Source: a virus. Taken from it: a DNA stretch of 23,984 nt. The stretch spans positions 1 to 23,984 of IMG/VR virus record IMGVR_UViG_3300037558_000716. One strand, given 5' to 3'. Positions 731-20,900 of this stretch are shown in pieces. Below the pieces are notes generated by a model, which saw nothing but the letters and a program-made list of their open reading frames with translations, did not search any database and had not been told where the DNA came from. How positions within the stretch are numbered: position 1 is the first letter of the stretch; the number at the start of each line of letters is the position of its first letter. The position numbers and the translations under genes are program-made.

Positions 731-1047
731 AGTATAGTTTGCAGTTCCTGAGAAAGGAAAACGATCTAAACAAAATACTATCACAACAAAAATCTAACAA
801 GTCTAGCATGAGTATCCTTTTCGTTTCCGATTGGGACAACTGGTGCTCAGACTTGGTAGGAGAACTCAAGACTAAGTATGGGGAGTCTGAAGACGGGGAA
901 AAGCTTTACGTTGTAAACAGCTTTGATATGCCTCACAGCTTCGTCATCTATGGAAGTACGAAGGTGCCGCATCTCGTTCGGCTGAAGAAAGGTAAAGTGA
1001 GATCTGAGTTCTACCTACCGAATATTTATAAGCAGTTAAAGGTCTAA
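727..1047 (+). CDS. Thioredoxin-fold protein with a single active-site cysteine
   Basis: The 106-residue protein follows the thioredoxin layout. A hydrophobic strand (SILFVSD, 29-35) leads into WDNWCSDL (36-43), where thioredoxins have WCGPC. A second strand (LYVVNSFD, 60-67) and the cis-proline segment STKVPHLVRLKKGKV (77-91, Pro81) follow, matching the usual IPTL...NGEV region. The second redox cysteine is replaced: Cys40 is followed by Ser-Asp-Leu. It therefore cannot do ordinary dithiol chemistry. It may be a monothiol enzyme or a structural partner. The gene starts inside the previous stop (ATGA) and its last 12 bases overlap the convergent sigma gene. The fold call is strong; the role is unknown. 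Confidence 0.78.
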   Translation: MKYSLQFLRKENDLNKILSQQKSNKSSMSILFVSDWDNWCSDLVGELKTKYGESEDGEKLYVVNSFDMPHSFVIYGSTKVPHLVRLKKGKVRSEFYLPNIYKQLKV

Positions 1048-1380
1048 CCCACCTTTTCGAATATCAATATAGTTTTCGATTTTCTGCTTATACTTTTTCT
1101 CTCTGGTATACATCAACTTAAGTTGATTTAGTATGACCGTTGTAAAATAGTTAAAGGCTGTGCCCTTCTTGGGCTTGAAGTTCTTAACTGTTTTCAGCAC
1201 CAGAGCAAAGCATTCTTGCTTGGCATCGTTGGGGTCCACTTCAAATTTGAAGGACTCAACGATGTTTCTTATTAATAATTCGAAGACAGAAACCAGGTCT
1301 TCTTCGTGAGTTTTCGGATCTTCTTTGTATAATAGGATGATCCTCTCAAACTCGTCGTTGTCTATATACTTATTTCCCAT
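1036..1380 (-). CDS. 55: T4 gp55-like RNA polymerase sigma factor for late transcription
   Basis: This 114-residue protein resembles the minimal late sigma factors of T4-like phages. An N-terminal YIDNDEFERIILLYKED (5-21) leads to a sigma region 2-like core. That core includes DAKQECFALVLKTVKNFKPK (52-71) and then GTAFNYFTTVILNQLKL (73-89), followed by a basic REKKYKQ (93-99). The F-x-P-x-K-G-x-x-F-x-Y-F-T signature is characteristic of gp55 proteins. Such factors recruit host RNA polymerase to short -10-like promoters without a -35 box. At 114 residues it is shorter than T4 gp55 (about 185) and has no sigma region 4. A good AAGGT precedes the ATG. The gene is leftward, divergent from the polymerase gene 13 nt away, and converges with the thioredoxin-like gene. 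Confidence 0.85.
   Translation of the reverse strand: MGNKYIDNDEFERIILLYKEDPKTHEEDLVSVFELLIRNIVESFKFEVDPNDAKQECFALVLKTVKNFKPKKGTAFNYFTTVILNQLKLMYTREKKYKQKIENYIDIRKGGLDL
1328..1335 (+). promoter_or_regulatory. TATAATAG box, candidate promoter of the replication operon
   Basis: TATAATAG followed by GATG lies 58 nt upstream of the polymerase N-terminal gene start at 1394, inside the antisense sigma gene. Firing here would give a leader of roughly 50 nt, a more usual spacing than the second copy at 1385. It lies in coding sequence on the other strand, so codon constraint could also explain it. Confidence 0.36.
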
Positions 1381-1384
1381 ACCT

Positions 1385-1392
1385 TATAATAG
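1385..1392 (+). promoter_or_regulatory. TATAATAG box between the divergent sigma and polymerase genes
   Basis: The 13-nt gap between the sigma gene (minus, ATG at 1380) and the polymerase gene (plus, ATG at 1394) consists mainly of this box. It shares the 12-mer TATAATAGTATG with the site at 348-359 (minus). Because it ends one base before the ATG, plus-strand initiation here would give a leaderless or 5'-truncated message. Leftward use for the sigma gene (TATTATAA on the minus strand) is an alternative. Confidence 0.36.
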
Positions 1393-1393
1393 T

Positions 1394-2416
1394 ATGTTTG
1401 ATCTGAACAAGCTGTACGCAGGCAGCAAAATGCAGGGTGGAGACCCTCGCTGCGAAGGTTGCAGCATCCTGTGCAAGGATAAAGCTGCCCACTCTGTCAT
1501 GGACTACAAGGACATGGAGCAGTGCGATGTTCTCTTTTTGTCCGACTCCTTGAGCTTTATTCATGGGTCTCCCGTGGCCTTCAACTCAAAGGAACTTAAC
1601 CTCCTTCAGGATACTTATCCCACTAAGTTTGCGACGGCAGCCTCGGTGAAATGTACAGAGGTCAAAGAGGCGGATATGAAGACGGACGACATTAAGATTT
1701 GTCGTCAGCATATTCAATCAACTATCGACACAATCAAGCCTCGCCTAGTGTTTGCCTGTGGCAACCTTGCGATGAAGATGATTCTAAGGAAGAGCGGTAT
1801 CACAAACAAGCGAGGGAAAGCCTTCGAGTTTGAGAGCGAAGAGGGTCACAAGTGTACTGTGGTTCCGATCTTCCACCCTTACGCCTGTATCAAGGAGCCG
1901 AAGAACCTTTCTCTATTCCAAACTGATATTAAGAATGCTTATGAAATGTACATTCTTAATCGTCGTAGGGAAGGGGACTTCAAGTACAAGGCGATCATGA
2001 ACTACGAGGATCTTGAAGACTTGACTGAGGTTCTAAAGACCACCTCCGAGACCTTGGCTATGGACACAGAAACTACGGGGCTTAACTTCCTTAAGGATAA
2101 GCTCATGACTCTATCCATTTCCAGTAGGGATATGACTTGGGTTATCCCCCTTGACCACAAGGACAGCCCATTCAAGAAAGGCACCGAGCACTACGCTGAC
2201 GTTTGGTTCTGCATTCGTGCGATCATGTCTAACCCCAAGAGCAAAAAAGTATTTCACAATGCTAAATTCGACCTGCATTTCTTGCTCTCCTATGGCATCT
2301 CGGTCGAGAACGTGTGGGACACTAAGATCATGCACCACCTGCTGGATGAGAACATGCCCAAGGGCCTGATGGACCTTACTAAACTTTACTTCGCCTCTGA
2401 ATTGGAGAACCTATGA
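1394..2416 (+). CDS. Split DNA polymerase A, piece 1: family 4 uracil-DNA-glycosylase-like domain plus 3'-5' exonuclease motifs I and II
   Basis: The 340-residue product has two parts. Residues 1-190 resemble family 4 uracil-DNA glycosylases, as known for the N-terminus of SPO1-type polymerases. Cys20, Cys23, Cys87 and Cys103 match the iron-sulfur spacing of that family, and HPYA (161-164) matches the C-terminal histidine motif. The usual GEAPG catalytic loop is replaced by SDSLSFIHG (50-58), so activity is doubtful. Residues 215-340 are a DnaQ-like proofreading domain: exo I is MDTETTG (Asp224, Glu226) and exo II is HNAKFD (Asn289, Asp293). The protein stops shortly after GLMDLTKLYF, before exo III, which lies in the gene at 2601. 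The ATG lacks a ribosome binding site. The stop overlaps the next gene (ATGA). Confidence 0.86.
   Translation: MFDLNKLYAGSKMQGGDPRCEGCSILCKDKAAHSVMDYKDMEQCDVLFLSDSLSFIHGSPVAFNSKELNLLQDTYPTKFATAASVKCTEVKEADMKTDDIKICRQHIQSTIDTIKPRLVFACGNLAMKMILRKSGITNKRGKAFEFESEEGHKCTVVPIFHPYACIKEPKNLSLFQTDIKNAYEMYILNRRREGDFKYKAIMNYEDLEDLTEVLKTTSETLAMDTETTGLNFLKDKLMTLSISSRDMTWVIPLDHKDSPFKKGTEHYADVWFCIRAIMSNPKSKKVFHNAKFDLHFLLSYGISVENVWDTKIMHHLLDENMPKGLMDLTKLYFASELENL
2404..2407 (+). promoter_or_regulatory. Ribosome binding site of the inserted 62-residue gene
   Basis: GGAG lies 5 nt before the ATG at 2413, inside the last codons of polymerase piece 1. It supports an independent start rather than a sequencing frameshift. 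Confidence 0.6.
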
Positions 2417-2601
2417 CACTAAAAGACTTGAAAGCCGAGCTAGATGAAGCGCAAGCGGAGTATGAGGAGCTTGATAATAAGTACAATGAAACTTTGGTTT
2501 TATTTTCCAAGCTTGAGTATGATAAACGCAGGGCTATGAAACGCTACTACGCAACCAGATACAATTACAATACTGCTTTAGGCTCCCAGGAGAATACTTA
2601 A
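2413..2601 (+). CDS. 62-residue charged helical protein inserted inside the split polymerase
   Basis: The product is short, highly charged and probably one or two long helices. LKDLKAELDEAQAEYEELDN (3-22) shows regular hydrophobic spacing suggestive of a coiled coil, followed by a basic, tyrosine-rich half (KRRAMKRYYATRYNY, 38-52). It has no polymerase motif. The gene starts in an ATGA overlap with piece 1 and ends in a TAATG overlap with piece 2, so it is translated between them. Joining pieces 1 and 2 without it gives a normal exo II to exo III distance (74 residues against 77 in E. coli Pol I). It is therefore an addition, not a polymerase segment. A role in holding the pieces together is conceivable, as is remnant insertion debris. 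I do not recognise the family. Confidence 0.65.
   Translation: MTLKDLKAELDEAQAEYEELDNKYNETLVLFSKLEYDKRRAMKRYYATRYNYNTALGSQENT
2588..2592 (+). promoter_or_regulatory. Ribosome binding site of polymerase piece 2
   Basis: AGGAG with 8-nt spacing to the ATG at 2601, placed within the inserted small gene. This strong site shows that piece 2 is started on its own. Confidence 0.7.
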
Positions 2602-3077
2602 TGCTTACTATCGACAATCCGTCTAAGTTCGACTGGGCCAACATGGATCTAGGTGAGTGCATGGAGGGTAACGCCATGGATACCCACTTCACACTCAAGC
2701 TATTTGATCTAATCGTAGACCGCTTGGAGGACAACACTATGAATCTTCTGAAGCATGTTGTTATGCCTAGCCTGACCAACTTCGCAGAGATGGAGTGGGA
2801 GGGATTGATCGTAGATCAGGAAGCTTTGGATAGGGTAGGTCGCCAGCTATCGTCAAAGAACATGGATCGAGAAGACGGTCTGTACACATGTAAGGGGGTT
2901 ACAACAAAAGATAATGTATCTTCTAATGCAGACCTGTGCGAGATCCTGTATACTAGAGAGGGCGGCATGGAACTGTATCCTCCTGACAGAACTCCTAAGG
3001 GGGCACCGTCTGTATCCGCACCTACACTAAAACTACTACTGGAACACATTGACGAGGAGCTAGAGCGCCGTGGCTAA
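2601..3077 (+). CDS. Split DNA polymerase A, piece 2: exonuclease motif III and thumb region
   Basis: The 158 residues continue the polymerase where piece 1 stops. GNAMDTHFTLKL (23-34) aligns with exo III of Pol I; Asp27 corresponds to Asp501, while the usual tyrosine four positions earlier is Gly23. PSLTNFAEMEWEGLIVDQEA (55-74) matches the Pol I segment that precedes the thumb. NVSSNADLCEIL (105-116) and TPKGAPSVSAPTLKLLL (131-147) match the thumb's SPKQLQ and GAPSTSEEVL segments. The protein ends in ELERRG, just before the palm. It starts in a TAATG overlap behind AGGAG, and overlaps piece 3 by 8 nt in another frame. It can only be meaningful as a subunit with pieces 1 and 3. Confidence 0.84.
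   Translation: MLTIDNPSKFDWANMDLGECMEGNAMDTHFTLKLFDLIVDRLEDNTMNLLKHVVMPSLTNFAEMEWEGLIVDQEALDRVGRQLSSKNMDREDGLYTCKGVTTKDNVSSNADLCEILYTREGGMELYPPDRTPKGAPSVSAPTLKLLLEHIDEELERRG
3054..3059 (+). promoter_or_regulatory. Ribosome binding site of polymerase piece 3 (GTG start)
   Basis: GAGGAG with 10-nt spacing to the GTG at 3070, inside the end of piece 2. It decides the non-ATG start of the palm/fingers gene. Confidence 0.65.
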
Positions 3078-4155
3078 TTGGAAGCATAGGGATGAGGGTA
3101 AGAGGATTAGTAAGTCTGTGGTGTCAAGCAAAAGCACTGAGGAGTTACTTGAGTCTAAGCGTTTCATTAAGGGGCTTCTTGACCTACGCAAGTCCCAGAA
3201 GCTCACAAAGACCTACATTGACGGAACTAAGAAGGCCATTGAGTACAACGACATGAGTAAAGTCTTTGTGGACTTCAGGTTTGATGGCACGGCCACAGGT
3301 CGTTTGTCTTGTGCGTCCTACAATGCACAGAAGCCTATGGGTGTTTCTTTCCACACTCTTCCTAGGGAGACTGAGGATAACATCAGGGACTTGTTCTGCG
3401 CTCCTGCTGGGTGGGACTTCATTGCTGCTGACTACGCTGCGATGGAGCTAAGGGTCTTGGCTCACATCTCTAAAGAGTTTGTCATGCAGAAGGCGTTCAA
3501 GTCGGGAGCGGACCTCCACACCTACACGGCGAGGCTCCTGTTCCAGAAGGAGGATATTAGCAAAGAGGAACGACAGATTGCTAAGACAGTATCCTTCCTT
3601 ATTGTCTACGGTGGTGGGGCATTCAACCTTAGTGAGACGATGGGTATTCCCATGAAGCGTGCTGAGAAGATTATTGCTGACTATCAAAATGTATACCCAG
3701 GTATCTTTGAGTACATGGACTTTGTTAATCAGTATGTTCTGAGGAACCAAGAGGCGTACACTATCTTCGGCAGAACTCGTAAGCTTCCCAACGTAACCAG
3801 TAAGGATCGTGGTGTAGTCAATCGTGCCCTAAGACAAGGACTGAACTTTACCATTCAATCCACAGCGTCAGACATTCTTTTGTGCGCTCTGCTTGGCATT
3901 AGTCGTAGGTTTAAGCGAGAAGGTATGGAGGCTCGACCTGTGGCTACGGTTCATGACTCGATTGAAGTAGTTTCTCCGAAGAATGAGAGCAAGAGAGCTA
4001 TTGAAATCATCTATGATGAGATGGTAAATTACCCCACGCTCAGGAAGGTATTCGATATTGAATTTGACGTTCCCTTTGGTATTGATGTTGAGCTTGGTAC
4101 TTCGTTTGGGAACGGGAAGGAAGTGCATTTTGAGGGGGGAGTCCCCATCCTATGA
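3070..4155 (+). CDS. polA: Split DNA polymerase A, piece 3: palm and fingers (polymerase active site)
   Basis: The 361-residue product holds all polymerase motifs. TATGRLS (74-80) is followed by motif A, AADYAAMELR (119-128), with catalytic Asp121 and steric-gate Glu126. Motif B is RQIAKTVSFLIVYGG (168-182), with Arg168, Lys172, Phe176 (Pol I position 762) and Tyr180. Motif C is TVHDSIEV (293-300), with Asp296. The usual His-Asp-Glu of motif C is His-Asp-Ser, as in many phage enzymes. About 35-40 residues at the piece 2/3 junction exceed the E. coli thumb length. The start is GTG, chosen for GAGGAG 10 nt upstream and because no ATG precedes the conserved region. The last 4 bases overlap thyX. 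It should synthesise phage DNA when assembled with pieces 1 and 2. Confidence 0.93.
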   Translation: MANWKHRDEGKRISKSVVSSKSTEELLESKRFIKGLLDLRKSQKLTKTYIDGTKKAIEYNDMSKVFVDFRFDGTATGRLSCASYNAQKPMGVSFHTLPRETEDNIRDLFCAPAGWDFIAADYAAMELRVLAHISKEFVMQKAFKSGADLHTYTARLLFQKEDISKEERQIAKTVSFLIVYGGGAFNLSETMGIPMKRAEKIIADYQNVYPGIFEYMDFVNQYVLRNQEAYTIFGRTRKLPNVTSKDRGVVNRALRQGLNFTIQSTASDILLCALLGISRRFKREGMEARPVATVHDSIEVVSPKNESKRAIEIIYDEMVNYPTLRKVFDIEFDVPFGIDVELGTSFGNGKEVHFEGGVPIL

Positions 4156-4814: not shown

Positions 4815-5815
4815 TTATCGGAGACTTGCACTTCAACCATACACCTAGGGGTATGCTGGAGGCGCAAGAGGACACAGTAAGAAAAATTGTTGAGCGCGGG
4901 ATTATTAAGCATCGTTGTGACTCGGTAATTTTCTTGGGCGATCTGATGATGCACCGCTCACCCCGCCCGCCAGTGATGTTATCTCTTAAGTATTTAATGA
5001 ACTGGATCACTGAGGAAAAAGGTCTCGATGTTTATATCCTAAGAGGTAACCACGATAGCTATAATAAATCAGACGATGGGGTTACTTCCCTGTCTTTACT
5101 TGCTAACGATAAAGTAAAAGTAATAACTCAAACTGAATACAATGAAGAATATGATTGGACGTTCATACCGCACTACGAGGATGAGCAGAGGATTGAACAT
5201 GATTTGGGTGCTGCCCATCCAGGTAGTTTTGTCTTTGGTCATTTTGGTTACGTCGGTTCTCTTAACTCTGCTGGCGACGCCGACTTTGGCCTTCAACTGG
5301 ATGCTTTCAAAAACCGTACTATACTTGGGCACATTCACAAGCATACCGAAGACGGACAAGTTACAGTCCTGGGAACACCCTATTCAACAAACTTTGGAGA
5401 AGCTGGAAAAGATTGCTATTACGGAGTTATCACAAAGAAAGGATTCAAGAAATACCCAATAGACTTTGGGGTTAGACATTTAGTAATTGACTATGATAAA
5501 GTTGAAGATAATGTGGACTGGATTAATAATGAAGATTGGTTTACCCTTCTTCGAGTTAATATCAACTCTCTGGAGGAAGACTCGTCTGTGGCTTGGACAT
5601 GTGATGGGTTGGATGTAGGGACCTATGAGATCAAGTACGTTCCTCTCCTAGATGATCGAGATGTGTTTGATCCTCAGCCAGGGGTAGTGTCGTTGCAGGT
5701 TAACGATGACTTGATTGAGCAGTACCTGAACGCGAGCAACTCAAAAATTAATAAAGATGTTTTACTTGAAGGCTTGAGACTGATTAATGAAAATCAAAAG
5801 AATAGAGATCAATAA
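4802..5815 (+). CDS. 47: gp47/SbcD-like recombination exonuclease subunit (calcineurin-like phosphoesterase)
   Basis: The 337-residue protein is the nuclease half of an SbcCD/Mre11-Rad50-type complex; in T4 the pair gp46-gp47 resects DNA ends for recombination-dependent replication. Metal-binding motifs run in order: GDLHFNH (7-13), FLGDLM (44-49), RGNHDS (81-86), GHFGYVG (146-152) and LGHIHKH (175-181). These supply Asp8, His10, Asp47, Asn83, His84, His147, His177 and His179. The C-terminal third is the less conserved capping domain. An in-frame TTG at 4790 exists, but GGGAGG at 4792-4797 points to the ATG at 4802. The gene overlaps thyX by 13 nt and the ATPase subunit by 29 nt, the normal order for this pair. 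Confidence 0.93.
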   Translation: MPTLIIGDLHFNHTPRGMLEAQEDTVRKIVERGIIKHRCDSVIFLGDLMMHRSPRPPVMLSLKYLMNWITEEKGLDVYILRGNHDSYNKSDDGVTSLSLLANDKVKVITQTEYNEEYDWTFIPHYEDEQRIEHDLGAAHPGSFVFGHFGYVGSLNSAGDADFGLQLDAFKNRTILGHIHKHTEDGQVTVLGTPYSTNFGEAGKDCYYGVITKKGFKKYPIDFGVRHLVIDYDKVEDNVDWINNEDWFTLLRVNINSLEEDSSVAWTCDGLDVGTYEIKYVPLLDDRDVFDPQPGVVSLQVNDDLIEQYLNASNSKINKDVLLEGLRLINENQKNRDQ

Positions 5816-7364
5816 CTTTTATTCTGTAAAGAATATTGAGTTCGACATTGGCAGCCAAGGTGAAGGGGTTGTCATGATTGAGGGCAGGAATAAAGACACC
5901 AAAGGTTCTAATGGCTCAGGTAAGAGCGCCTTGATTGAGGCTCTTGTCTGGGGCCTTTTTGGTAGAACTATCCGTAAGTCTACAGAGGAAGCTTTAGTCA
6001 ACAACCGCACGCGGAAGAACTGCTCTGTCCGTGTAGAGGTAAACGACCTAGTGATTGAGCGAGGGAAGAGGCCAACCTACCTTAAGCTAATCAAAGACGG
6101 GCAGGACATCACCACAGACAACGCAACTAATACTCAGAAGTTGATTGATGAGTTACTAAACACAAATTATAAAGTGTTTCTTGCATCCACAATCTTCGGC
6201 CAGCAGAATAACATTGAGTTCCTGACGGCCACTCCTGATGATAAGAGAACTATCATCAAGAACTTCTTGAATTTAGATGACCTGTTTGCTTTGCGTGACT
6301 CTGTAAAGTATCTGAAGTCCGAGTATAATCAAGGAGCAAAGCGTCTGTCAGCGATTCTGGAAGAACATGAAGGGACGGTGAAGACTTATGATTACGACAT
6401 CAGCGAAGCTAGAAAGTCGCTTGAAGGCATTGATTCAGAGCTTATGGATAAGTGTAGGAATCTTACTCTCGCAGAAGTGGTGGCTGTACGCGACCACAAT
6501 CAACGCATAGACTGGGAGGAGAAAGATCTCCTGCGAACTCTCCAAGGCGAACAGAGGCGAGCACAGGACTTCCTACGGGACGCTAGGGCTAAGACCTGTA
6601 GATCGTGTGGACAGAGCGTCAAGAAGGCTATGGACGAAGACCAATTAGCAGACAAGATGGCAGCCTTTGACATTGAGATTGAGGGTATCCAGTCCTCGAT
6701 TGATCTACTAAAAAAAGGTAGGCAAAAAGAAATTGTTAGCCCGGAAGAGTATGATAAGGTTTCCAAGTATAAAACCTTCGAGGATAAGATCAGCTTTTTA
6801 CAAAAGCAAAAGGAACAAACTCTAGAGAAAATCCAAAATGTTTATGATGAGCGTGGTGATTACAATACAAACTATGAGATCATGAAGTTTTGGGAGAAGG
6901 CATTCTCTGAGAATGGTGTAGTAAAATTTGTTATCAGAAATGTGCTTGAGTATTTCAACGCAAAGGTTAACTTCTATCTATCACACCTGTCTCAAGGTAA
7001 GTTCTTCATTGAGTTTGATGAATCTCTAACGGAGACCATCACTCACAAGTCTCATACAATTCATTACATCTCCTTGTCAGGGGGAGAGAAAAAGAAAATC
7101 AGTCTAGCTGTAATGCTGGGCCTTCAAAGCCTGCTAAAGATCTCCAACACCGAAGACGTTAATATTATGTTTTTCGATGAAATCGCTGAATCTTTGGACG
7201 CCGAAGGAATGGAAGGACTCTACATACTTCTATCTGAATTAAAGAAAACAAAGACTTTGTATGTAATTACTCATAATAATTACCTCAAATCTTTAATGGA
7301 CAATGCTAAGACAGTGACTATGATAAAGTCCAACGGAACCTCAAAACTATCATTAAGAAAATAA
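5787..7364 (+). CDS. 46: gp46/SbcC/Rad50-like ATPase subunit of recombination nuclease
   Basis: This 525-residue SMC-like ATPase partners with the upstream nuclease. Walker A is GSNGSGKS (40-47). A glutamine-loop region follows (FGQQNN, 137-142). Two helical arms, roughly 165-265 and 285-355, flank the zinc hook CRSC (271-274). The ABC signature is LSGGEKKK (430-437), Walker B is VNIMFFDE (458-465) and the switch histidine is in ITHNN (494-498). The arms are short compared with bacterial SbcC (about 1,050 residues), as in T4 gp46 (560). The start lies 29 nt inside the gp47-like gene. A TAATT spacer joins it to the reductase gene. Confidence 0.94.
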   Translation: MKIKRIEINNFYSVKNIEFDIGSQGEGVVMIEGRNKDTKGSNGSGKSALIEALVWGLFGRTIRKSTEEALVNNRTRKNCSVRVEVNDLVIERGKRPTYLKLIKDGQDITTDNATNTQKLIDELLNTNYKVFLASTIFGQQNNIEFLTATPDDKRTIIKNFLNLDDLFALRDSVKYLKSEYNQGAKRLSAILEEHEGTVKTYDYDISEARKSLEGIDSELMDKCRNLTLAEVVAVRDHNQRIDWEEKDLLRTLQGEQRRAQDFLRDARAKTCRSCGQSVKKAMDEDQLADKMAAFDIEIEGIQSSIDLLKKGRQKEIVSPEEYDKVSKYKTFEDKISFLQKQKEQTLEKIQNVYDERGDYNTNYEIMKFWEKAFSENGVVKFVIRNVLEYFNAKVNFYLSHLSQGKFFIEFDESLTETITHKSHTIHYISLSGGEKKKISLAVMLGLQSLLKISNTEDVNIMFFDEIAESLDAEGMEGLYILLSELKKTKTLYVITHNNYLKSLMDNAKTVTMIKSNGTSKLSLRK

Positions 7365-13074: not shown

Positions 13075-13605
13075 ATGAGAAACCTAATTGTATCAACTAT
13101 TGTAGCCCTTGTCATCATGACTGGGTTTAGCTCCTGCAAAGTGCTAGGAGACCTTTTCGGAGAAAGCACGGTTATCACCAGCGAGACAGAACTCGTCGAA
13201 GGTGAAGTCGGAACGCCTATCCCATACGACCAACTTCCTGAGGATGTAAAGAAGCAAGTGCCTGAGGGCACTGTTCTTGTCCTTGCTGACAAAGAGCAGC
13301 TTAAAGAGGAAGCAGCGTACATCCCTGTAAGCCCTCCTGGTGATGGCGATGTAGGGGGTATCCTGGACGCTCTAATTGCACTAGGTGTAACCTTTGTTCC
13401 TGGCCTTGCGGCTTGGGAAGGTGTGCTTACTGTGATCAGCCGCCGGAAGCGTAAGAACTACGCTAAGGCTATTAAGGCCCTGGCCCCTACTGATAGCAAT
13501 GTCGATCTAGCGGGGACTATTCACGGTATTGGAGCGGCACTAGGTGTGGCTCATACTTCAGAAGCTTCAAAGGAGGCAGCAGAAGAAGAAGAAGAACTAG
13601 TCTAA
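13075..13605 (+). CDS. Lipoprotein with a second hydrophobic segment, function unknown
   Basis: The 176-residue protein starts with a lipoprotein signal: basic MRN, a hydrophobic stretch to residue 15 and TGFSSC (16-21), with Cys21 as the lipidated residue. Residues 45-90 are proline-rich and polar. GGILDALIALGVTFVPGLAA (about 95-114) is a second hydrophobic segment, followed by a strongly basic SRRKRKNYAKAIKAL. The tail is acidic (KEAAEEEEELV). This topology, lipid anchor plus internal hydrophobic helix, recalls single-protein spanins, but those normally end in the membrane segment, so I do not assign it. It ends the replication operon just before a strong terminator, where lysis or membrane genes often sit. 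The start lacks a Shine-Dalgarno and follows the SSB stop by 2 nt. Confidence 0.72.
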   Translation: MRNLIVSTIVALVIMTGFSSCKVLGDLFGESTVITSETELVEGEVGTPIPYDQLPEDVKKQVPEGTVLVLADKEQLKEEAAYIPVSPPGDGDVGGILDALIALGVTFVPGLAAWEGVLTVISRRKRKNYAKAIKALAPTDSNVDLAGTIHGIGAALGVAHTSEASKEAAEEEEELV

Positions 13606-13640: not shown

Positions 13641-13670
13641 GAGAGCACCGAAAAGGTGCTCTCCTTTTTT
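13640..13670 (+). terminator. Strong intrinsic terminator ending the replication operon
   Basis: GGAGAGCACC (13640-13649) and GGTGCTCTCC (13655-13664) form a perfect 10-bp stem with the loop GAAAA, followed by six T residues (13665-13670). It is one-directional: the other strand lacks a T-run after the stem. It separates replication genes from the glycan operon. Confidence 0.92.
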
Positions 13671-13673
13671 ATT

Positions 13674-14828
13674 ATGACTGAAGAAAAGAAATTAAAGATC
13701 CTTTGCGTTCCCGCCAACGAAGGTGGATGTTCCTACTACAGAATCATTTGTCCTATGAAGAAATTGCAAGAGCTTCACGGAGACAAGGTAGAGATTAAGT
13801 GGGATAAGAATCCTCTAGGCATAGACGAGAAGACAGGTAAGTGGCAGGAGAACTGGGAGTTTGAGACTATGAAGTGGGCCGACATTGTGTTCACTCAAAA
13901 CCTCTCTAACTTTGGCGGACCCTACACAGCCAGGATTGTTGGAAAAGCTAAAGAGTTCGGTTGCTTTGTTCATTACGACACAGACGACCTATTGACCAAT
14001 ATTTACGAGGGGCACAGGCTTTATGACGTTTATAAGGAAAAGGGTCTAGAGCAGATCGCTTCTTTCATTTACAATAATGCCGATCTGGTTACAGTTACCC
14101 AAAGAAAGTTTGCTGAGAGAGTTGTACCCCACATGGGTAAAGGTAACGCTCTAGCGATTGTCAAGAACACCATTGACTACAACTTGCCTTGCTGGAACAT
14201 GCCCAAGACTAAGGTAAAGAAGAAGAACTACGTTCGCTTCGGCTGGGTCGGAGGTATTCACCATGAGCAGGATCTAAGATACTTCTCTGGAGTTCCTCAC
14301 TTAGTAAACCAGAGAGTTGGGCGCGAGAATTGCCAGTGGGATTTTTATGGGCACCCGCCCCCCGGAAACACCGATTGGCAAACAGACGTTTGGAAGAAGT
14401 ACCAGTCTATTATCTTGAGAGGATTCAAAGGCGGTAAGAACTGGACTATCCATCATGCTTTACAACCTGATCGCTACGGTCAGTTCTATGCTAACATGGA
14501 TGTGGCTCTTGCTCCGCTAGAGATGAACGACTTCAATGACAGCAAGTCTGAAATTAAGGTGGCTGAGTGTGGTAGGTACAAAATCCCCCTGATCGCCAGT
14601 AATGTAGGCTGCTATGATGAGTGGATCAAGGACGGTGAGACCGGGTTCCTGATTGATCCTAAGAAAGGCATTTCAGAGTGGGTTAGGATTCTAACTCTCT
14701 GTGTCAAGAAGCCTGATCTAGTTAAGAGAATGGGAGAGAACCTACATCAGCTTACAGAAGAGAACTTTAACATGAACAAGATGGTTAAAGATCGCATAGA
14801 TCTTTATGAAGAGGTGATGAACCGATGA
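13674..14828 (+). CDS. GT-B fold glycosyltransferase (GT4-like)
   Basis: The 384-residue protein resembles family 4 glycosyltransferases. The N-terminal half has KILCVPANEGGCSYYRI and a strand ending HYDTDDLL (around 105), as in phage GT4-like proteins. The C-terminal half has FGWVGGIHHEQDL and an APLEMNDFNDSKSEIKVAE segment, where the E-x7-E-type donor-binding region is expected, followed by GCYDEWIKDGETGFLIDP. It should transfer a sugar from a nucleotide donor with retention. No signal peptide or membrane helix is seen. The frame is open to a GTG at 13656 inside the terminator. The ATG at 13674 has no Shine-Dalgarno, so the start is uncertain. It leads the glycan operon and overlaps the next gene (ATGA). 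Confidence 0.85.
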   Translation: MTEEKKLKILCVPANEGGCSYYRIICPMKKLQELHGDKVEIKWDKNPLGIDEKTGKWQENWEFETMKWADIVFTQNLSNFGGPYTARIVGKAKEFGCFVHYDTDDLLTNIYEGHRLYDVYKEKGLEQIASFIYNNADLVTVTQRKFAERVVPHMGKGNALAIVKNTIDYNLPCWNMPKTKVKKKNYVRFGWVGGIHHEQDLRYFSGVPHLVNQRVGRENCQWDFYGHPPPGNTDWQTDVWKKYQSIILRGFKGGKNWTIHHALQPDRYGQFYANMDVALAPLEMNDFNDSKSEIKVAECGRYKIPLIASNVGCYDEWIKDGETGFLIDPKKGISEWVRILTLCVKKPDLVKRMGENLHQLTEENFNMNKMVKDRIDLYEEVMNR

Positions 14829-15466
14829 GCCCTACCACAGTAATTATAAAGACCATAGGAAGAGATACACTTAAAAACTCTATTGAATCCGCGTTGGGTG
14901 AGGGATTGCCTGTTATAGTTGTTTTTGATGGCCCTAGTGATCAGGAAGACAAGCTACCTTCTTACGACGAGCAAGATGTGAGGTTTGTTACGTTAGGCAG
15001 GCGTTGGGGAAGCTTTGGTAACATGGCCGCTAACGTCGGCGCAGCCCTTGCTACAACGGAGTATATCACTTTTTTAGATGATGACGACGAGTTCGTTCCT
15101 GGAGCAGGAGATGTGATTAAAGAAAAAATCCAAGGAGACGCTAGTGTGGACATTTGGGTGGGAGGCGTCCGTTTTTCAACACCAGTAATGATGAGCACTG
15201 GGGAAGGCCCCCCTAAAAAAACATATGAGCTTGCTGTAAACTCAAAAGGAGGAGTATTTCCTGGGAACGTAGCCATGCCGACGTATAGGACGGAGCTAAT
15301 AGGCACAAAACCCTTTATGCCCCTCGTACAGCCTGGACAGGAAGACTACACTGACTTTATGCATGTATCTATCTGCCATTCAGCAGGAGCCAAGGTAGAC
15401 TGGTTTGGTGAAGCTTTGTATTTGGTTAGGCCACGCTTACAGGGAACCAACGGGCGGGGAAAGTAA
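14825..15466 (+). CDS. GT-A fold glycosyltransferase (GT2-like)
   Basis: The 213-residue protein begins TTVIIKTIGRDTL and carries an NVGAALATTEYITFLDDDDE segment (70-89); the DDDD at 85-88 is the metal- and nucleotide-binding acidic motif of GT-A enzymes. FGNMAANVG corresponds to the usual R-N-x-G region of family 2. The C-terminal part, with QPGQEDYTDFMHVS (about 175-188), likely holds the catalytic acidic residue in the ED pair. The protein is short for the family and soluble. Its ATG overlaps the previous stop (ATGA). Acceptor and donor cannot be told from the sequence. Confidence 0.8.
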   Translation: MSPTTVIIKTIGRDTLKNSIESALGEGLPVIVVFDGPSDQEDKLPSYDEQDVRFVTLGRRWGSFGNMAANVGAALATTEYITFLDDDDEFVPGAGDVIKEKIQGDASVDIWVGGVRFSTPVMMSTGEGPPKKTYELAVNSKGGVFPGNVAMPTYRTELIGTKPFMPLVQPGQEDYTDFMHVSICHSAGAKVDWFGEALYLVRPRLQGTNGRGK

Positions 15467-15469
15467 GCT

Positions 15470-16174
15470 ATGGACTCTAAGTATTTAGTGACTGTATTGT
15501 GCTCCACATATAACTCTGCGAAGTGGATAGAGGGGTATCTATGTTCTTTGAATGACCAACTTTTGGAGAACTTTAAAGTTATCTTTGTTGATGCAAACTC
15601 AGATGATGGATCCTTGGAAACAATAAAAAACTTTTCATTTAGAGAAGGTATCTTTGTGGACATCGTAGAGTGTGACTCTAAAATACCTATTTATGAAGCC
15701 TGGAATATAGCCATAGAAAGAGCAGAAACTTCGTATGTTCTTAACATCAACACCGATGATAGATTATTTCCTGGTGGCCTTACAAGCTACCTGACATATG
15801 CAGAGGCAAACCCGGAGGTAGATGTGTTTTATTGTTCTTATCTGGTTACAGGGGACGCAGAGCACACTCAAGTAACGGGTCTAAGGTGTTCTCCCCCCCA
15901 CGACCACAAAACTCTCTGGAACTTTTGTTATTGCGGGCCGTTCCCAATGTTAAAAAGAAACTCTGTAATTGAAGATGGTTTGTTTAATCCGAAATATGTT
16001 ATCTCTGGAGATTATGAGATGTGGCTTAGGATGTCAAAGAAAGGAAGAAACTTTTTTCGGGTGCAAGAGCCTTTGGGAACTTACTTTGAAAACCCCGAGG
16101 GCGTGAGCACCGACAAAAAACATTTTGATGAGATCCGTCGCCAGGACAGTGAGATTAGGAGAATATATGTATGA
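15470..16174 (+). CDS. Family 2-type glycosyltransferase
   Basis: The 234-residue protein has a standard family 2 N-terminus: LVTVLCSTYNSAKWIEGYL (6-24), then VIFVDANSDDGSLE (37-50) with the Asp that binds the nucleotide base, and LNINTDDRLFPGG (91-103) holding the D-D metal motif. VISGDYEMWLRMSKKG (about 180-195) matches the family's G-[DE]-[DY]-x-[ED]-[MW] acceptor region with its catalytic acidic residue. No membrane helix is present. It starts 3 nt after the previous stop and ends overlapping the next gene (ATGA). It should transfer a sugar with inversion onto a glycan built by its neighbours. Confidence 0.88.
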   Translation: MDSKYLVTVLCSTYNSAKWIEGYLCSLNDQLLENFKVIFVDANSDDGSLETIKNFSFREGIFVDIVECDSKIPIYEAWNIAIERAETSYVLNINTDDRLFPGGLTSYLTYAEANPEVDVFYCSYLVTGDAEHTQVTGLRCSPPHDHKTLWNFCYCGPFPMLKRNSVIEDGLFNPKYVISGDYEMWLRMSKKGRNFFRVQEPLGTYFENPEGVSTDKKHFDEIRRQDSEIRRIYV

Positions 16175-16995
16175 GAAATTATTGCACCCTCTCTGATAAA
16201 AACTATTTAGGTCAAGGACTTGCTTTAATAAATTCCATTAGACGAGTATCCTCGGAAAAGTTTACTCTATATTACCTTTGTTTAGATGATGAAACTTATC
16301 GAAGATTGGCTAATATAGAAGGCGTAGTTCCCGTTAAACTGAGCGATGTGGAAGACTCTAGAGAGCAAATAAAAAAGTATAAACAATCCGCAGCGTATAA
16401 CGAGTATTGTTGGTCCTTGGCTTCTACTTTTTCAAGATATCTTCTTGAAGATGGTCTTGAATCTGTGATGTACATTGATGCTGATATTTATTTTTATCAA
16501 GACCCAAAGATTATTTATAAGGAATTAGGAGACAAAAGCATTGGAATTATTAGACATCGGCACAATACAAGCTCGTCTCCAGACGGCGAGTTTAATGTAG
16601 GAATCATATTCTTTAAGAATGATGAGAAAGGAAGAGCATGTTTGAATTGGTGGAATGATTGTCTGTTACAAAATCTTCGACCCGATCTGGCTTCTTGCGG
16701 TGACCAAAAGTATTTGGAGGAGTTTCCTAAGAAGTGGGACACTGCAATCTTAGACAAGACATTCGCACACGGCGCACCTTGGAACTATAGGCTGTATGTG
16801 TACGATAATTTTTTCACTGATGGCACGGTTATCTGGGGGGATAAAGTTCAGCCTTTGGTATTTAATCACTTTTCAAAGTTTAGTTTAGATCACCCTACAT
16901 CGGGCAACTACGCAGACCATACTTTAAATTTCCAAGTGTTTGCTATTCCCGCTCTTAATCAAATGTATAGAGAGTATGCACAGGAGGTAAGGTGA
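16171..16995 (+). CDS. Glycosyltransferase with GT8-like DxD motif
   Basis: The 274-residue protein carries MRNYCTLSDKNYLGQGLALI at the N-terminus, the family 8-like opening, and VMYIDADIYFYQDP (99-112) with Asp103 and Asp105 as the DxD metal site. FNVGIIFFKNDEKG and CGDQKYL (a conserved D-Q pair) follow as in retaining GT-A enzymes. HGAPWNYRLYVYDN and LVFNHFSKF near residues 200-240 fit a late histidine-containing metal-binding region. The base composition is visibly more AT-rich than in the replication genes. It overlaps both neighbours by 4 nt. Confidence 0.82.
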   Translation: MRNYCTLSDKNYLGQGLALINSIRRVSSEKFTLYYLCLDDETYRRLANIEGVVPVKLSDVEDSREQIKKYKQSAAYNEYCWSLASTFSRYLLEDGLESVMYIDADIYFYQDPKIIYKELGDKSIGIIRHRHNTSSSPDGEFNVGIIFFKNDEKGRACLNWWNDCLLQNLRPDLASCGDQKYLEEFPKKWDTAILDKTFAHGAPWNYRLYVYDNFFTDGTVIWGDKVQPLVFNHFSKFSLDHPTSGNYADHTLNFQVFAIPALNQMYREYAQEVR

Positions 16996-17858
16996 AGATA
17001 GCTTTTGGAATGATCGTGTTTAATGGAGATTATGTTCTTCAAGAGTGTTTAGAGTCGGTGTACCCTTATGCTACTCAAATTCTTATTGCAGAAGGCCCTG
17101 TAAGATACTGGCAGGATCAAGGCTACACTACCTCTACAGATAAAACAAATGAGATCTTAGCCAACTTCCCAGACCCAGAGAACAAGATTACGATTGTCCA
17201 CGGACAGTTTGAGGGGAAGGACGAGGAGTGCAGGGCGTACATGCCGCATATGAGAGATGACATAGATTACATTTGGAATCTAGACTCGGATGAAATTTAC
17301 AAACCTGAGGATATTGAAAAGATTATACAGATCTTAAAGAAAGAGAATTACACTTCTGTGGGAGTTAGAAGCTGCTCTTTCTATGGAGGCTTTGATGATT
17401 TCATTGGGGGCTTTGAGCTTGCTAAGGATAACTTTCTTAGAATCTTTAAAGTATACCCTAACGCTACTTGGAAGACTCACCGACCTCCCACTATTATCGC
17501 ACCCGCTGGAACCGCAACACTCCCAGAGAAACACTTAGACAGTGATACGCTCTGGGAAGAGCATGGTGTGCAAATGTATCATTACTCTTATGTGTTTCCT
17601 AGACAAGTAAAAGAAAAGATCGCATACTACAAGGCAAAGGTGAGCAGGGAAAATTGTCACCCCAGTTACTATGAGGATATTTATCTTCCATGGGTTAGGG
17701 GAGTTAAGAGTGTAGAACATAGTTGGAGAGGTGTACATGAGTTTAGACCAGAAAGCAGGGGAGAGGCGTACACCGAAAAATTTAAAGGAAAGCACCCAGT
17801 GTTGATTTCAAAGAAAATAGAACAGTTTAAAAAAGAGATAGAAAATGGAACACGTTAA
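16992..17858 (+). CDS. Family 2-like glycosyltransferase
   Basis: The 288-residue protein starts MKIAFGMIVFNGDYVLQECL, continues with ILIAEGPVRYW and has YIWNLDSDEIYKPEDIEK (93-110) with the Asp98/Asp100 metal site. This is the pattern of short phage glycosyltransferases related to family 2. RIFKVYPNATWKTHRPPTII and YHYSYVFPRQVKEKIAYYKAK lie in the acceptor half. The start is GTG in a GTGA overlap, with AGGAGG 5 nt upstream, which decides this start over later ATGs. The last 14 nt overlap the methyltransferase gene. Confidence 0.83.
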   Translation: MKIAFGMIVFNGDYVLQECLESVYPYATQILIAEGPVRYWQDQGYTTSTDKTNEILANFPDPENKITIVHGQFEGKDEECRAYMPHMRDDIDYIWNLDSDEIYKPEDIEKIIQILKKENYTSVGVRSCSFYGGFDDFIGGFELAKDNFLRIFKVYPNATWKTHRPPTIIAPAGTATLPEKHLDSDTLWEEHGVQMYHYSYVFPRQVKEKIAYYKAKVSRENCHPSYYEDIYLPWVRGVKSVEHSWRGVHEFRPESRGEAYTEKFKGKHPVLISKKIEQFKKEIENGTR

Positions 17859-18465
17859 TTCTTGGAAAAACAAAGAGGTATTTGTTGATCAGTTAGCTCT
17901 TAACGAAAGTGAGCTAAATAACTATCCTGATCATTGGAAGCATTTTCTAAACGCTACACTCAAATGTGTTAGTATTAGAAAGTCTACCCTTCTAGATATT
18001 GGGTGTGGAGCAGGAACATACAAGACGATTTGCGAGTCCCATCTGCCCAACGTAACATACACTGGTATGGATTATTCACAGGAAGCGATTGAGATAGCTA
18101 AGACTCGCTGGGGAGGAGTAAACTGGAGAGTGGGGGACTACCAGAGTTTGACGGAACAAGATGGGGCACAGTATGACATTCTTCATGCAGGAGCGATGTT
18201 AGATGTTCTCCCTAAGGGGGATGAAGCTCTTTCTTTCTTATTAAGCTTGGGGTTTAAAAATATTATACTTGGTAGGGTTAAATTAACTGAGGATGATAGC
18301 AACTGCTCAGTGTATGAGGTCTATAATAAGATTCAGACCTACGCTTACTCTCACAACATTCCTAACCTTTTGAGAATGTTTAAAGAGGCGCAGTACGCTT
18401 GCACATTAATTCAAGGAGAACAAAACAGTTGCACCATTCTACTACAAAAGAACCAGTCACATTAG
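17845..18465 (+). CDS. Class I SAM-dependent methyltransferase
   Basis: The 206-residue protein has LLDIGCGAGTYK (49-60), the SAM-binding glycine motif, followed by YTGMDYSQEAIEIAK with the acidic residue that contacts the ribose. YDILHAGAMLDVLP sits at motif IV. Its place among sugar-transfer genes suggests O-methylation of a sugar or of a modified target, but substrate specificity is not visible. The ATG lies 14 nt before the previous stop. The 3' end overlaps the next gene by 37 nt. Confidence 0.82.
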   Translation: MEHVNSWKNKEVFVDQLALNESELNNYPDHWKHFLNATLKCVSIRKSTLLDIGCGAGTYKTICESHLPNVTYTGMDYSQEAIEIAKTRWGGVNWRVGDYQSLTEQDGAQYDILHAGAMLDVLPKGDEALSFLLSLGFKNIILGRVKLTEDDSNCSVYEVYNKIQTYAYSHNIPNLLRMFKEAQYACTLIQGEQNSCTILLQKNQSH

Positions 18466-19169
18466 GCACTCCCCCCTGCACCCGTGAAGAGCTTTGTGAT
18501 GCTCTTGAAGAGTTTGCAGAGCTTTATAAAAAACGACCTATCAGGGATAACGATGGCGGCATGAAGGCCCCACAGATGTTCGCCGCATGGTTTATGGCTA
18601 AGAAATTACAGCCTACCGCCATCATTGAGAGTGGGGTTTGGTTAGGACAGGGAACATGGTTCTTTGAACAAGCTTGCCCTACTGCTAAACTTATTTGTAT
18701 AGAACCGAATATTGAGAGGGTGCAGTACCGTAGTGATAAAGCTACTTATACTAAGCTGGATTTTTCTCAAATTTCATGGAAGCAAGCAGTAGATTGTGAA
18801 ACTACTTTGTGCTTCTTTGATGATCATCAAAATGCTTTATCGCGTTTAGAGGTCGCTACTCCTCAAGGGTTTAAGCATTTAATATTTGAAGACAATTACC
18901 CTGTCTCCCAAGGAGATTGCGTAAGCTTAAAGACTATCTTAGAAGAGGACTCCGATGACAGGAGTATTGCTGATAATTATCTCCTTTCTTACTATGAGTT
19001 CCCACCCCCTGTAAAAGGTGAGAAGACTAGATGGGGCGATGACTGGACAGACGAGATGTACCCGACGCATGATCCCCTAATTACTGAGAGAACCGAGGCG
19101 TATGAAGATTACTTCGACGGGTATGAGAATTACACTTGGATCTGTTACGCAGAGGTAGGAGAGAAATGA
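18429..19169 (+). CDS. Methyltransferase-like protein, CmcI/sugar O-methyltransferase type
   Basis: The 246-residue protein has IIESGVWLGQGTWFFEQ, where motif I of SAM-dependent enzymes is expected, then AKLICIEPN, and CFFDDHQNALSRLE with an Asp-Asp-His pattern typical of metal-using sugar O-methyltransferases of the CmcI/rhamnosyl type. The assignment is moderate because motif I is non-standard. The frame is open to a TTG at 18399. The TTG at 18429 has AAGGAG with 10-nt spacing and is preferred. It is the second methyltransferase-like gene in a row. The C-terminus is acidic and tyrosine-rich. Confidence 0.62.
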   Translation: MHHSTTKEPVTLGTPPCTREELCDALEEFAELYKKRPIRDNDGGMKAPQMFAAWFMAKKLQPTAIIESGVWLGQGTWFFEQACPTAKLICIEPNIERVQYRSDKATYTKLDFSQISWKQAVDCETTLCFFDDHQNALSRLEVATPQGFKHLIFEDNYPVSQGDCVSLKTILEEDSDDRSIADNYLLSYYEFPPPVKGEKTRWGDDWTDEMYPTHDPLITERTEAYEDYFDGYENYTWICYAEVGEK

Positions 19170-19996
19170 AAATTCCTGTTGTAGTTATTAGCAAGACTAT
19201 AAACCCATGTCCTGAATTGAAGCTGGTGGTAAACCAAGCTAAGGCATGGAACTCTGATGTATTCCTTCTTGGAGATGAAGGTAATCAAGATTACTGCCCA
19301 GACAATCATAAGTTTATGTCTGAGTATTACGAAGGCGTAGAAGATTTTGAAAATCTCTATCAGCATCTTAGCACTAACCCCCAAGATATTGAAAAGTTTT
19401 GCTTTAGCAGGTGGTTTATTCTTAGAAACTTCTTGCGTAAGGAGGGTTACAAGGGTGCATTTTATATAGATAACGATATTTTGTTATTCACAGATGTTTC
19501 CGTAGAGTATGAAAAAAGAAAGCATCTCTATTGTATGCTTTCTGGAAAAACGTCTGGACATTCCTCTTATTGGTCTATCGAAGGAATAGAGGCATTTTGT
19601 GACTATCTGATGGAAATTTATAGTAATAAAGATTCCTACGATTTTGCTAGGCTTGCTTCCCATTATCATGTAAGACAACAGCATGGTCTTTATGGAGGAC
19701 TATGTGATATGACACTATTAGAATCTTTTGGGAGGTATAGGTATCCTCACATGGTAGGAGAAGGAAGTGTAGCAAATCCTATGAGTAAAGAACCTTACTA
19801 TGATCATGTCATCCAAGAAGATGAGGGGTTTGAACATGAAAATGGTAGAAAGAAATTTATTATAACGGACGGAATACCATATTCCAAATATTTGTCTACT
19901 GGAACTTATATCCCTTTTGCTACGGTTCATTTTCAAGGAGCCAACAAACCTTTAATGGCTCCCTTCATCAAAGAATGTAATGATACCCTTATTTAA
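19166..19996 (+). CDS. Glycosyltransferase-like protein with DxD motif
   Basis: The 276-residue protein has KIPVVVISKTINPCPEL at the N-terminus and AFYIDNDILLFTDV (98-111), with Asp102 and Asp104 as a DxD-type site, the hallmark of GT-A glycosyltransferases. HGLYGGLCDMTLL and YIPFATVHFQGANKP (histidine near the C-terminus) fit the later metal-binding and sugar-binding parts. GGAG just upstream fixes ATG 19166, in an ATGA overlap with the previous gene. Exact family is uncertain. Confidence 0.72.
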   Translation: MKIPVVVISKTINPCPELKLVVNQAKAWNSDVFLLGDEGNQDYCPDNHKFMSEYYEGVEDFENLYQHLSTNPQDIEKFCFSRWFILRNFLRKEGYKGAFYIDNDILLFTDVSVEYEKRKHLYCMLSGKTSGHSSYWSIEGIEAFCDYLMEIYSNKDSYDFARLASHYHVRQQHGLYGGLCDMTLLESFGRYRYPHMVGEGSVANPMSKEPYYDHVIQEDEGFEHENGRKKFIITDGIPYSKYLSTGTYIPFATVHFQGANKPLMAPFIKECNDTLI

Positions 19997-20900
19997 CATT
20001 AACAAGTATACCATTAACATGGAACAGTTCGGTAATGTTTTGCATGGTACTGTTGTCGATGATTTTGTGAAGTCCTTCTGTAAATATGTTGGGGCTAAGT
20101 ATGGTTGCGCGGTCAACAGTGCAACCAATGCAATCTTCCTGACCTTTGAAGGTCAGGAAGAGGAGGTCACCATACCTTCTGTGTTACCTCCAGTGGTCTA
20201 CAATGCGTTACACCACGCAGGACAGCAAATCAGGTATAAGGACGACGTTGAGTGGGTAGGAAGCTCTTATGAGCTTCATAATTTTGGCCCTTATAAAGTA
20301 ATCGACTCAGCGCAGAGAGTAGAGAAAGATCAATTCAAAGAAGCTAATGATGATGATTTAATGATATTCAGCCTTTACCCAACAAAACCCGTTGGTGGAA
20401 TGGATGGAGGACTCATAGTTTCCAACGATAGAGATAAGATTGAATACTTCAAGCAAAGGTCACTAAACGGAATGTCTTTTTCCGAAAACAACTGGGAGAG
20501 AAAACAAATTTCAATTGGTTGGAAAATGTATATGAACTCGGCACAGGCTTATGTAGCAAAACAGAATCTAAAAAAATTGCCAATGAAGTATAAGAGGCTT
20601 AAGCAAATAAGAGAAAGATATAATGCTGAGTTTGGGCTGAATAATACCAGCAACCACCTGTACAGAATTAATGTAAAAAATAGAGAACAAGCTGCCCAGA
20701 AGCTTTCTTCAGCGGGAATTACCACAGGTATTCATTACACCCCTCTCCATAAACAGTCGCTGTATATGCAAGACATCGCTTTGCCTAAATCTGAGGAGGA
20801 AGGTAAGACAACATTAAGTATTCCTTTCAACGAAGCTTTATCCCAAAAAGAGGTAAATAAGATTGTACAGGAGGTGTCTGCATGTTTATTGAGTCACTAA
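19980..20900 (+). CDS. DegT/DnrJ/EryC1-type sugar aminotransferase (PLP-dependent)
   Basis: The 306-residue enzyme should transfer an amino group to a keto sugar nucleotide. Pyridoxal phosphate-site motifs are present: GCAVNSATNAIFL (42-54), VIDSAQR (107-113, Asp109 and Gln112), and FSLYPTKPVGGMDGGLIV (130-147) with the Schiff-base Lys136. The presence of Lys136 argues against the ColD-type dehydratases, which have histidine there. At 306 residues it is shorter than the usual 370-400; the segment after residue 50 is compressed. It overlaps the previous gene by 17 nt and the FdtA-like gene by 19 nt. Those two steps work in sequence in known 3-amino-sugar pathways. Confidence 0.87.
   Translation: MIPLFNINKYTINMEQFGNVLHGTVVDDFVKSFCKYVGAKYGCAVNSATNAIFLTFEGQEEEVTIPSVLPPVVYNALHHAGQQIRYKDDVEWVGSSYELHNFGPYKVIDSAQRVEKDQFKEANDDDLMIFSLYPTKPVGGMDGGLIVSNDRDKIEYFKQRSLNGMSFSENNWERKQISIGWKMYMNSAQAYVAKQNLKKLPMKYKRLKQIRERYNAEFGLNNTSNHLYRINVKNREQAAQKLSSAGITTGIHYTPLHKQSLYMQDIALPKSEEEGKTTLSIPFNEALSQKEVNKIVQEVSACLLSH

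What the first reader, a model, noticed from the sequence alone, without database searches (positions are those of the whole stretch)
1394..4155. DNA polymerase A encoded as three separate, translationally coupled genes
Exonuclease motifs I and II, exonuclease motif III plus thumb, and palm/fingers are in three different frames, each with its own start (ATG without a ribosome binding site, ATG behind AGGAG, GTG behind GAGGAG) and stop/start overlaps. Joined, they give one complete polymerase: the exo II to exo III spacing is 74 residues against 77 in E. coli Pol I. All palm catalytic residues are intact, so this is unlikely to be a dead gene. One break is inside the proofreading domain, where a split has to be repaired by protein assembly.
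Basis: partly seen in the sequence, partly recalled or inferred. Interest (0 to 1): 0.78.

Follow-up and report, generated by a model that had tools for sequence, protein, structure and literature searches.

The report
Phage DNA polymerase in three genes
A widespread group of uncultured marine T4-type phages carries its DNA-copying enzyme as three separate conserved genes, cut even through the proofreading site and with unrelated genes often lodged in that cut, so the enzyme must be put together from pieces inside the infected cell.

Summary
Family A DNA polymerase is encoded at 1394-4155 as three separate cistrons: E (UDG-like + exo I/II), M (exo III + thumb) and P (palm/fingers). All 134 related loci (51 after clustering) that carry the three pieces keep them separate; none is fused. 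dN/dS is 0.01-0.11 for every piece. Exo carboxylates and the main palm residues are invariant in all 134. Only one PolA, and no PolB or PolC, was found in the larger contigs. The breaks map to about Klenow 472/475, inside the exonuclease domain so that D501 sits on M, and about 615-623 in the thumb. The E/M junction is either a TAATG stop-start overlap with a Shine-Dalgarno, or holds 0.15-2.3 kb of cargo; with minus-strand cargo, M loses its Shine-Dalgarno and has a TATATAG box 2 nt before its ATG. Most likely three proteins assemble into one polymerase, as Aeromonas phage 25 43A/43B do. Unexpectedly, the exo III tyrosine (Y497) is Gly in every member, so proofreading strength is open. A new three-part variant of a known kind.

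The parts
1394..2416 (+). E: UDG-like domain (Fe-S type Cys C20, C23, C87, C103) plus N-terminal part of the 3'-5' exonuclease domain with exo I (D224, E226) and exo II (D293)
1385..1393 (+). promoter-like TATNATAG box directly before the E ATG (0-4 nt spacing in 46 of 51 clustered loci); no Shine-Dalgarno; probably a near-leaderless start
2413..2601 (+). 62-aa predicted coiled-coil ORF lodged between E and M, coupled by ATGA to E and by TAATG to M; present only in the window's close relatives; dN/dS about 0.1-0.2
2601..3077 (+). M: C-terminal part of the exonuclease domain with exo III (D27 = D501; Y497 position is Gly23) plus thumb
3070..4155 (+). P: palm and fingers (motifs A DYAAMELR, B RQIAKTVSFLIVYG, C VHDS), GTG start overlapping the M stop by 8 nt; about 20-30 N-terminal residues absent from intact relatives

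Best explanation
A single family A replicative DNA polymerase (UDG-like domain, 3'-5' exonuclease, polymerase) was cut into three cistrons in the ancestor of this clade of marine phages that carry T4-type head genes, and it has been kept that way. E, M and P are translated as separate proteins. By default M is coupled to E by TAATG with a Shine-Dalgarno in the E 3' end, and P is coupled to M by a GTG...TAA or ATGA overlap. Where minus-strand genes sit between E and M, M probably starts from its own box. The three proteins dock through their native interfaces (the E/M ends meet in a variable loop of the exo domain), possibly helped by about 40 extra residues at the M/P junction, to rebuild one polymerase whose exonuclease site draws its metal ligands from two chains. 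Shown: arrangement, conservation, selection, invariant residues, absence of another phage replicase in the contigs searched. Inferred: physical assembly, activity, and use as the replicase.
For: No fused copy in 134 loci / 51 clusters. The arrangement also occurs on a 130.6-kb contig of the Prochlorococcus single-cell assembly AG-409-P03. The E/M gap is -1 in 24 and 184-2287 nt in 27 of 51 clusters, on mixed frames and strands, so no frameshift or intron can join E and M generally. dN/dS 0.014-0.114 for each piece. D355, E357, D424, D501, D705, R754, K758, F762, Y766, H881, D882 equivalents invariant in 134 of 134. E + M + P together cover Klenow about 330 to the C-terminus with nothing missing at E/M (13+9 residues against 24). 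Shine-Dalgarno match of 4 nt or more before M in 20 of 24 overlap loci and before P in 42 of 51, against 22% background. TATRTA[GC]NN before the M ATG in 22 of 22 minus-cargo loci and 0 of 29 others. One DNA_pol_A match per contig in 12 of 12, and no PolB or DnaE in 16. Precedent: phage 25 43A and 43B co-purify and are active (PMC2988022).
Against: No biochemical or proteomic data. The Y497 position is Gly in all members, so proofreading may be weak or absent. M alone folds poorly in silico (pLDDT 62, pTM 0.25): it fits a need for partners but does not prove it, and the alignment was thin. No complex could be modelled. Contigs are mostly fragments, so a second polymerase elsewhere is not strictly excluded.
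Confidence: 0.85

Rival explanations
1. Recoding or RNA-level joining (programmed frameshifting, a self-splicing intron or trans-splicing) makes one full-length polymerase from the three frames.
For: M/P overlap by 8 or 4 nt and E/M overlap by 1 nt in about half of the loci, which formally could allow frameshifting.
Against: E/M are separated by 0.15-2.3 kb with minus-strand genes in many relatives, in all frame relations; junction types vary; M and P have well-placed Shine-Dalgarno matches; no Rfam intron in the window or in ten insert loci; M/P carries about 40 residues absent from intact relatives.
Confidence: 0.04
2. The pieces work apart: P (with or without M) is an exonuclease-free polymerase and E, or E with M, has another role such as uracil recognition or repair.
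For: E and M are uncoupled by cargo in many loci, which would allow different expression; Y497 is lost in all members; E keeps the four Fe-S cysteines.
Against: All four exo carboxylates, including D501 on M, are invariant in 134 of 134; M and P are nearly always overlapping; breaks fall inside domains, not between them.
Confidence: 0.1
3. Sequencing or assembly errors, or a decaying gene.
For: Frameshifts do occur in individual contigs (L028 and L076).
Against: Identical architecture in 134 loci from many independent assemblies plus a single-cell genome, strong purifying selection, precise stop/start overlaps.
Confidence: 0.01

Closest known systems
Split gp43 (43A/43B) of Aeromonas T4-like phages 25 and 44RR
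   Same: A T4-type phage replicase in separate genes that reassembles; per PMC2988022 43A and 43B co-purify and polymerise; intercistronic material varies between phages
   Different: Family B; two pieces; the gap holds a seg homing endonuclease or an untranslated spacer. Here family A, three pieces, cut inside the exo and thumb domains, clade-wide, with non-endonuclease cargo on both strands
OM43 phages MEP401/MEP402 (Zobellviridae) PolA in two ORFs
   Same: Marine phage family A polymerase in separate ORFs around a small unknown ORF (PMC10580990)
   Different: One break, inside the palm (Pfam DNA_pol_A ends at 132 in gp13 and resumes at 154 in gp15); exo domain intact on one ORF; unrelated short PolA; authors considered an intron
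Rhodothermus phage RM378 exonuclease and polymerase genes
   Same: A distant terminase relative (30% TerL identity) with exonuclease and polymerase domains on separate genes
   Different: Family B (DNA_pol_B_exo1 and DNA_pol_B), two pieces far apart, cut between domains
Herelleviridae (SPO1-type: LysYB1, phi18) and phage ctfzr933 PolA
   Same: UDG-like + exo + polymerase order, about 30% identity; the nearest intact annotated relatives found
   Different: Single gene; exo III Tyr present
Bacillus phage BSTP12/BSP7 PolA in two annotated ORFs
   Same: UDG + exo + PolA interrupted
   Different: One break in the palm (profile position 217/233) with a gap of about 350 bp, cause not tested

Membership tests
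Family A DNA polymerase | Motifs A, B and C with catalytic Asp pair and O-helix R/K | tested here: met
   PF00476 2.8e-76; D705, R754, K758, F762, Y766, H881, D882 equivalents invariant in 134 of 134
Family A DNA polymerase | Thumb and palm on one polypeptide | tested here: not met
   Most of the thumb is on M, palm/fingers on P, in every locus
DEDDy 3'-5' proofreading exonuclease of Pol I type | Four acidic residues D355/E357/D424/D501 | tested here: met
   Invariant in 134 of 134, three on E and one on M
DEDDy 3'-5' proofreading exonuclease of Pol I type | Exo III Tyr (Y497) | tested here: not met
   Gly in 134 of 134; Tyr in three intact relatives
DEDDy 3'-5' proofreading exonuclease of Pol I type | 3'-5' exonuclease activity | not testable with these tools
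   Needs protein
Family 4 uracil-DNA glycosylase (N-terminal domain of E) | UDG fold with CX2C...CX14-17C Fe-S cysteines | tested here: met
   Family-4 UDG 4zbx by profile 2.1e-13 and by fold 3e-6; C20, C23, C87, C103 invariant
Family 4 uracil-DNA glycosylase (N-terminal domain of E) | Catalytic GEAPG-type loop | tested here: inconclusive
   No GEAPG-like motif seen by eye in E; not tested by structure
Split replicative polymerase reassembling from separate chains (gp43A/B type) | Conserved separate cistrons under purifying selection with no intact copy | tested here: met
Split replicative polymerase reassembling from separate chains (gp43A/B type) | Physical complex with polymerase activity | not testable with these tools
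   Experiment needed
Split by homing endonuclease or group I intron | Endonuclease gene or intron RNA in the gap | tested here: not met
   No Rfam hit; the inserts examined resemble no homing endonuclease. An ancestral element that was later lost cannot be excluded

The most novel reading that the evidence does not exclude
A phage replicase that is an obligate three-protein enzyme, whose 3'-5' exonuclease site is built across two polypeptides and has traded the catalytic Tyr for Gly, and whose E/M break has become a standing cargo site: genes come and go there on either strand while M switches between coupled translation and its own start. Separate control of E and M could let the phage tune proofreading.
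Probability: 0.45. Interest if true: 0.78.

Novelty: new variant of a known kind. Interest (0 to 1): 0.64.

Why it matters
It is a clade-wide natural experiment in protein fragment complementation of a replicative polymerase. It shows that both the exonuclease domain and the thumb tolerate a permanent break, gives junctions under natural selection for split-polymerase engineering, and makes testable whether a proofreading site shared by two chains and lacking Y497 still proofreads. It also warns that standard annotation can miss or mislabel replicases in marine viromes.

Tried and rejected
Assembly error or decay: rejected by 134 relatives and dN/dS. Frameshift, intron or trans-splicing: rejected by insert sizes, strands and frames and by no Rfam hit. 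Homing endonuclease in the gap: none among the inserts examined; cargo is lipoprotein-like, internal-protein-like, glycosyltransferase or 2OG-oxygenase. Cyanophage-type metabolism: no psbA family match in ten contigs, so the Prochlorococcus single-cell link is only a lead. RM378 as a PolA precedent: its split genes are family B. Modelling M + P as one chain: the alignment with separate M and P rows failed. M alone gave a low-confidence model, not searched further. PHROGs on cargo proteins gave nothing. DNA-level search of the single-cell contig against annotated phages gave nothing. No fused close relative was found; only about 33% identical intact phage polymerases are known as outgroup, so the order of the two splits is unresolved.

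Full report
OBSERVATION. The three frames are as described. E (1394-2416) carries a UDG-like domain and exo I/II; M (2601-3077) carries exo III and thumb; P (3070-4155) carries palm and fingers. The window is a 24-kb IMG/VR virus fragment.

CONSERVATION. Scans of viral contigs with P, E and a P alignment gave about 190 loci. In 134 loci (51 after clustering) all three pieces are complete and separate; no locus has E-M or M-P in one frame. One locus is on a 130,604-bp contig of the Prochlorococcus single-cell assembly AG-409-P03. E identity goes down to about 45%, so the split is old.

JUNCTIONS. In 24 of 51 clusters the E stop and M start overlap as TAATG; in 27 there are 184-2287 nt between them. 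M-P overlap is 8 nt (GTG...TAA, 32), 4 nt (ATGA, 15) or 23 nt (3); one locus, L130, has inserts at both breaks (634 and 585 nt), carrying a 2OG-Fe(II) oxygenase gene between E and M and a DUF6445 gene between M and P. On the tree the E/M state changes at least 8-9 times by starred branches alone, so that break is an insertion site in repeated use; recombination could contribute. L012 and L013 are close relatives, one with TAATG and one with a 91-aa coupled ORF precisely between E and M.

EXPRESSION SIGNALS. Upstream of M, 20 of 24 overlap loci have a Shine-Dalgarno match of 4 nt or more, and 42 of 51 upstream of P, against 22% at random positions. When the cargo next to M is on the minus strand, M has lost the Shine-Dalgarno (19 of 22 without a 3-nt match) and has TATRTA[GC] exactly 2 nt before its ATG in 22 of 22, against 0 of 29 other loci. 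E itself is preceded by TATNATAG at 0-4 nt in 46 of 51, a box enriched before ORFs in these genomes (126 against 3 in shuffled sequence). I read these as promoter boxes giving nearly leaderless mRNAs. The box is near-palindromic and may serve the divergent neighbour too, so this step is inferred.

SELECTION AND RESIDUES. dN/dS is 0.014-0.114 for E, M and P in the pairs where it could be estimated. D355, E357, D424 (on E), D501 (on M), D705, R754, K758, F762, Y766, H881 and D882 equivalents are invariant in 134 loci. The Y497 position is Gly in all 134, while three intact relatives have Tyr. E883 is Ser, as in the intact relatives compared.

WHERE THE BREAKS LIE. Profiles place E on Klenow 330-459 plus 13 residues, M on 484-615 with 9 residues before and 13 after, P from 623 (Klenow chain residue 1 taken as 324). 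The E/M join has 22 residues where Klenow has 24, so nothing is missing or added; the break lies in a loop that varies in length among intact phage enzymes. The M/P join has about 37-42 residues more than Klenow or Bst, including a conserved P N-terminus (W..R.E.K.I), a candidate docking element. The E model is confident (pLDDT 80) and matches Klenow exo and family-4 UDG folds. M alone is not, which fits a piece that needs partners but is weak evidence.

SOLE REPLICASE. Twelve larger contigs have exactly one DNA_pol_A match, and sixteen have no PolB or DnaE match. Portal_T4 and T4-type terminase genes, and in the window gp32-like SSB, SbcC-like (gp46) and metallophosphoesterase (gp47-like) genes and a DnaB-type helicase, mark these as phages with T4-type head and replication genes but a family A polymerase.

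KNOWN CASES. Split gp43 of Aeromonas phages 25 and 44RR co-purifies and is active (PMC2988022). MEP401-type OM43 phages have PolA in two ORFs, cut in the palm (PMC10580990). RM378 has family B exonuclease and polymerase on distant genes. The Far-T4 paper (PMC4360716) mentions DNA polymerases but no split. In the searchable literature I found no three-part PolA and no polymerase cut through its exonuclease active site; literature coverage is limited to open-licence PMC papers.

VERDICT. A real, selected, clade-wide three-gene DNA polymerase. Best reading: an obligate three-chain enzyme. Assembly, activity and proofreading are not shown.

Noticed in passing
L043:6004-6993, L061:5983-8284, L084:4435-4960, L076:6014-7551, L018:3566-4504 (minus strand): Minus-strand cargo genes in the E/M break often share N-termini such as MNxYExIGESIWNTYxxMAxLLxE|A/G, resembling the T4 capsid-targeting sequence of internal proteins with a gp21-type hxE|A/G cleavage site; possibly a variable locus of co-packaged proteins.
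   Followed up: partly
L053:5986-6486 and equivalents in L052, L073, L083, L088, L089, L093, L094, L107, L068 (minus strand): A recurring 160-170 aa lipoprotein-like gene (SCSTIKHAVGGALGGG...TASTLHETGGLIKTLGYW) sits antisense in the polymerase break, with no Pfam or PHROG match; the window has a similar-looking lipoprotein at 13075-13605.
   Followed up: partly
window 1385-1393, 353-364; M starts of minus-cargo loci: Near-palindromic TATNATAG / TATATAG boxes 0-4 nt before start codons without Shine-Dalgarno, enriched across these genomes: possible bidirectional promoters with leaderless mRNAs.
   Followed up: partly
window 1036-1380 (minus strand): Small protein with a sub-threshold sigma-70 region 2 match (Pfam 2.7e-4), divergent from E by 13 nt; possibly a T4 gp55-like late sigma factor.
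   Followed up: no
window 1394-1900: The UDG-like domain keeps four Fe-S type cysteines in all 134 loci but shows no GEAPG-like catalytic loop by eye; it may be a structural or DNA-binding module.
   Followed up: partly
L130:4289-4846 and 5399-6001: Both polymerase breaks of one phage hold coupled plus-strand genes: a 2OG-Fe(II) oxygenase in the first and a DUF6445 protein in the second.
   Followed up: partly
window 13656-23984: A long run of glycosyltransferase, methyltransferase, aminotransferase and GDP-mannose dehydratase/fucose-synthase-like genes follows the replication genes.
   Followed up: no
L191:3923-4272 (Bacillus phage BSTP12): PolA interrupted in the palm by about 350 bp between two annotated ORFs; cause (intron or otherwise) not tested.
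   Followed up: no
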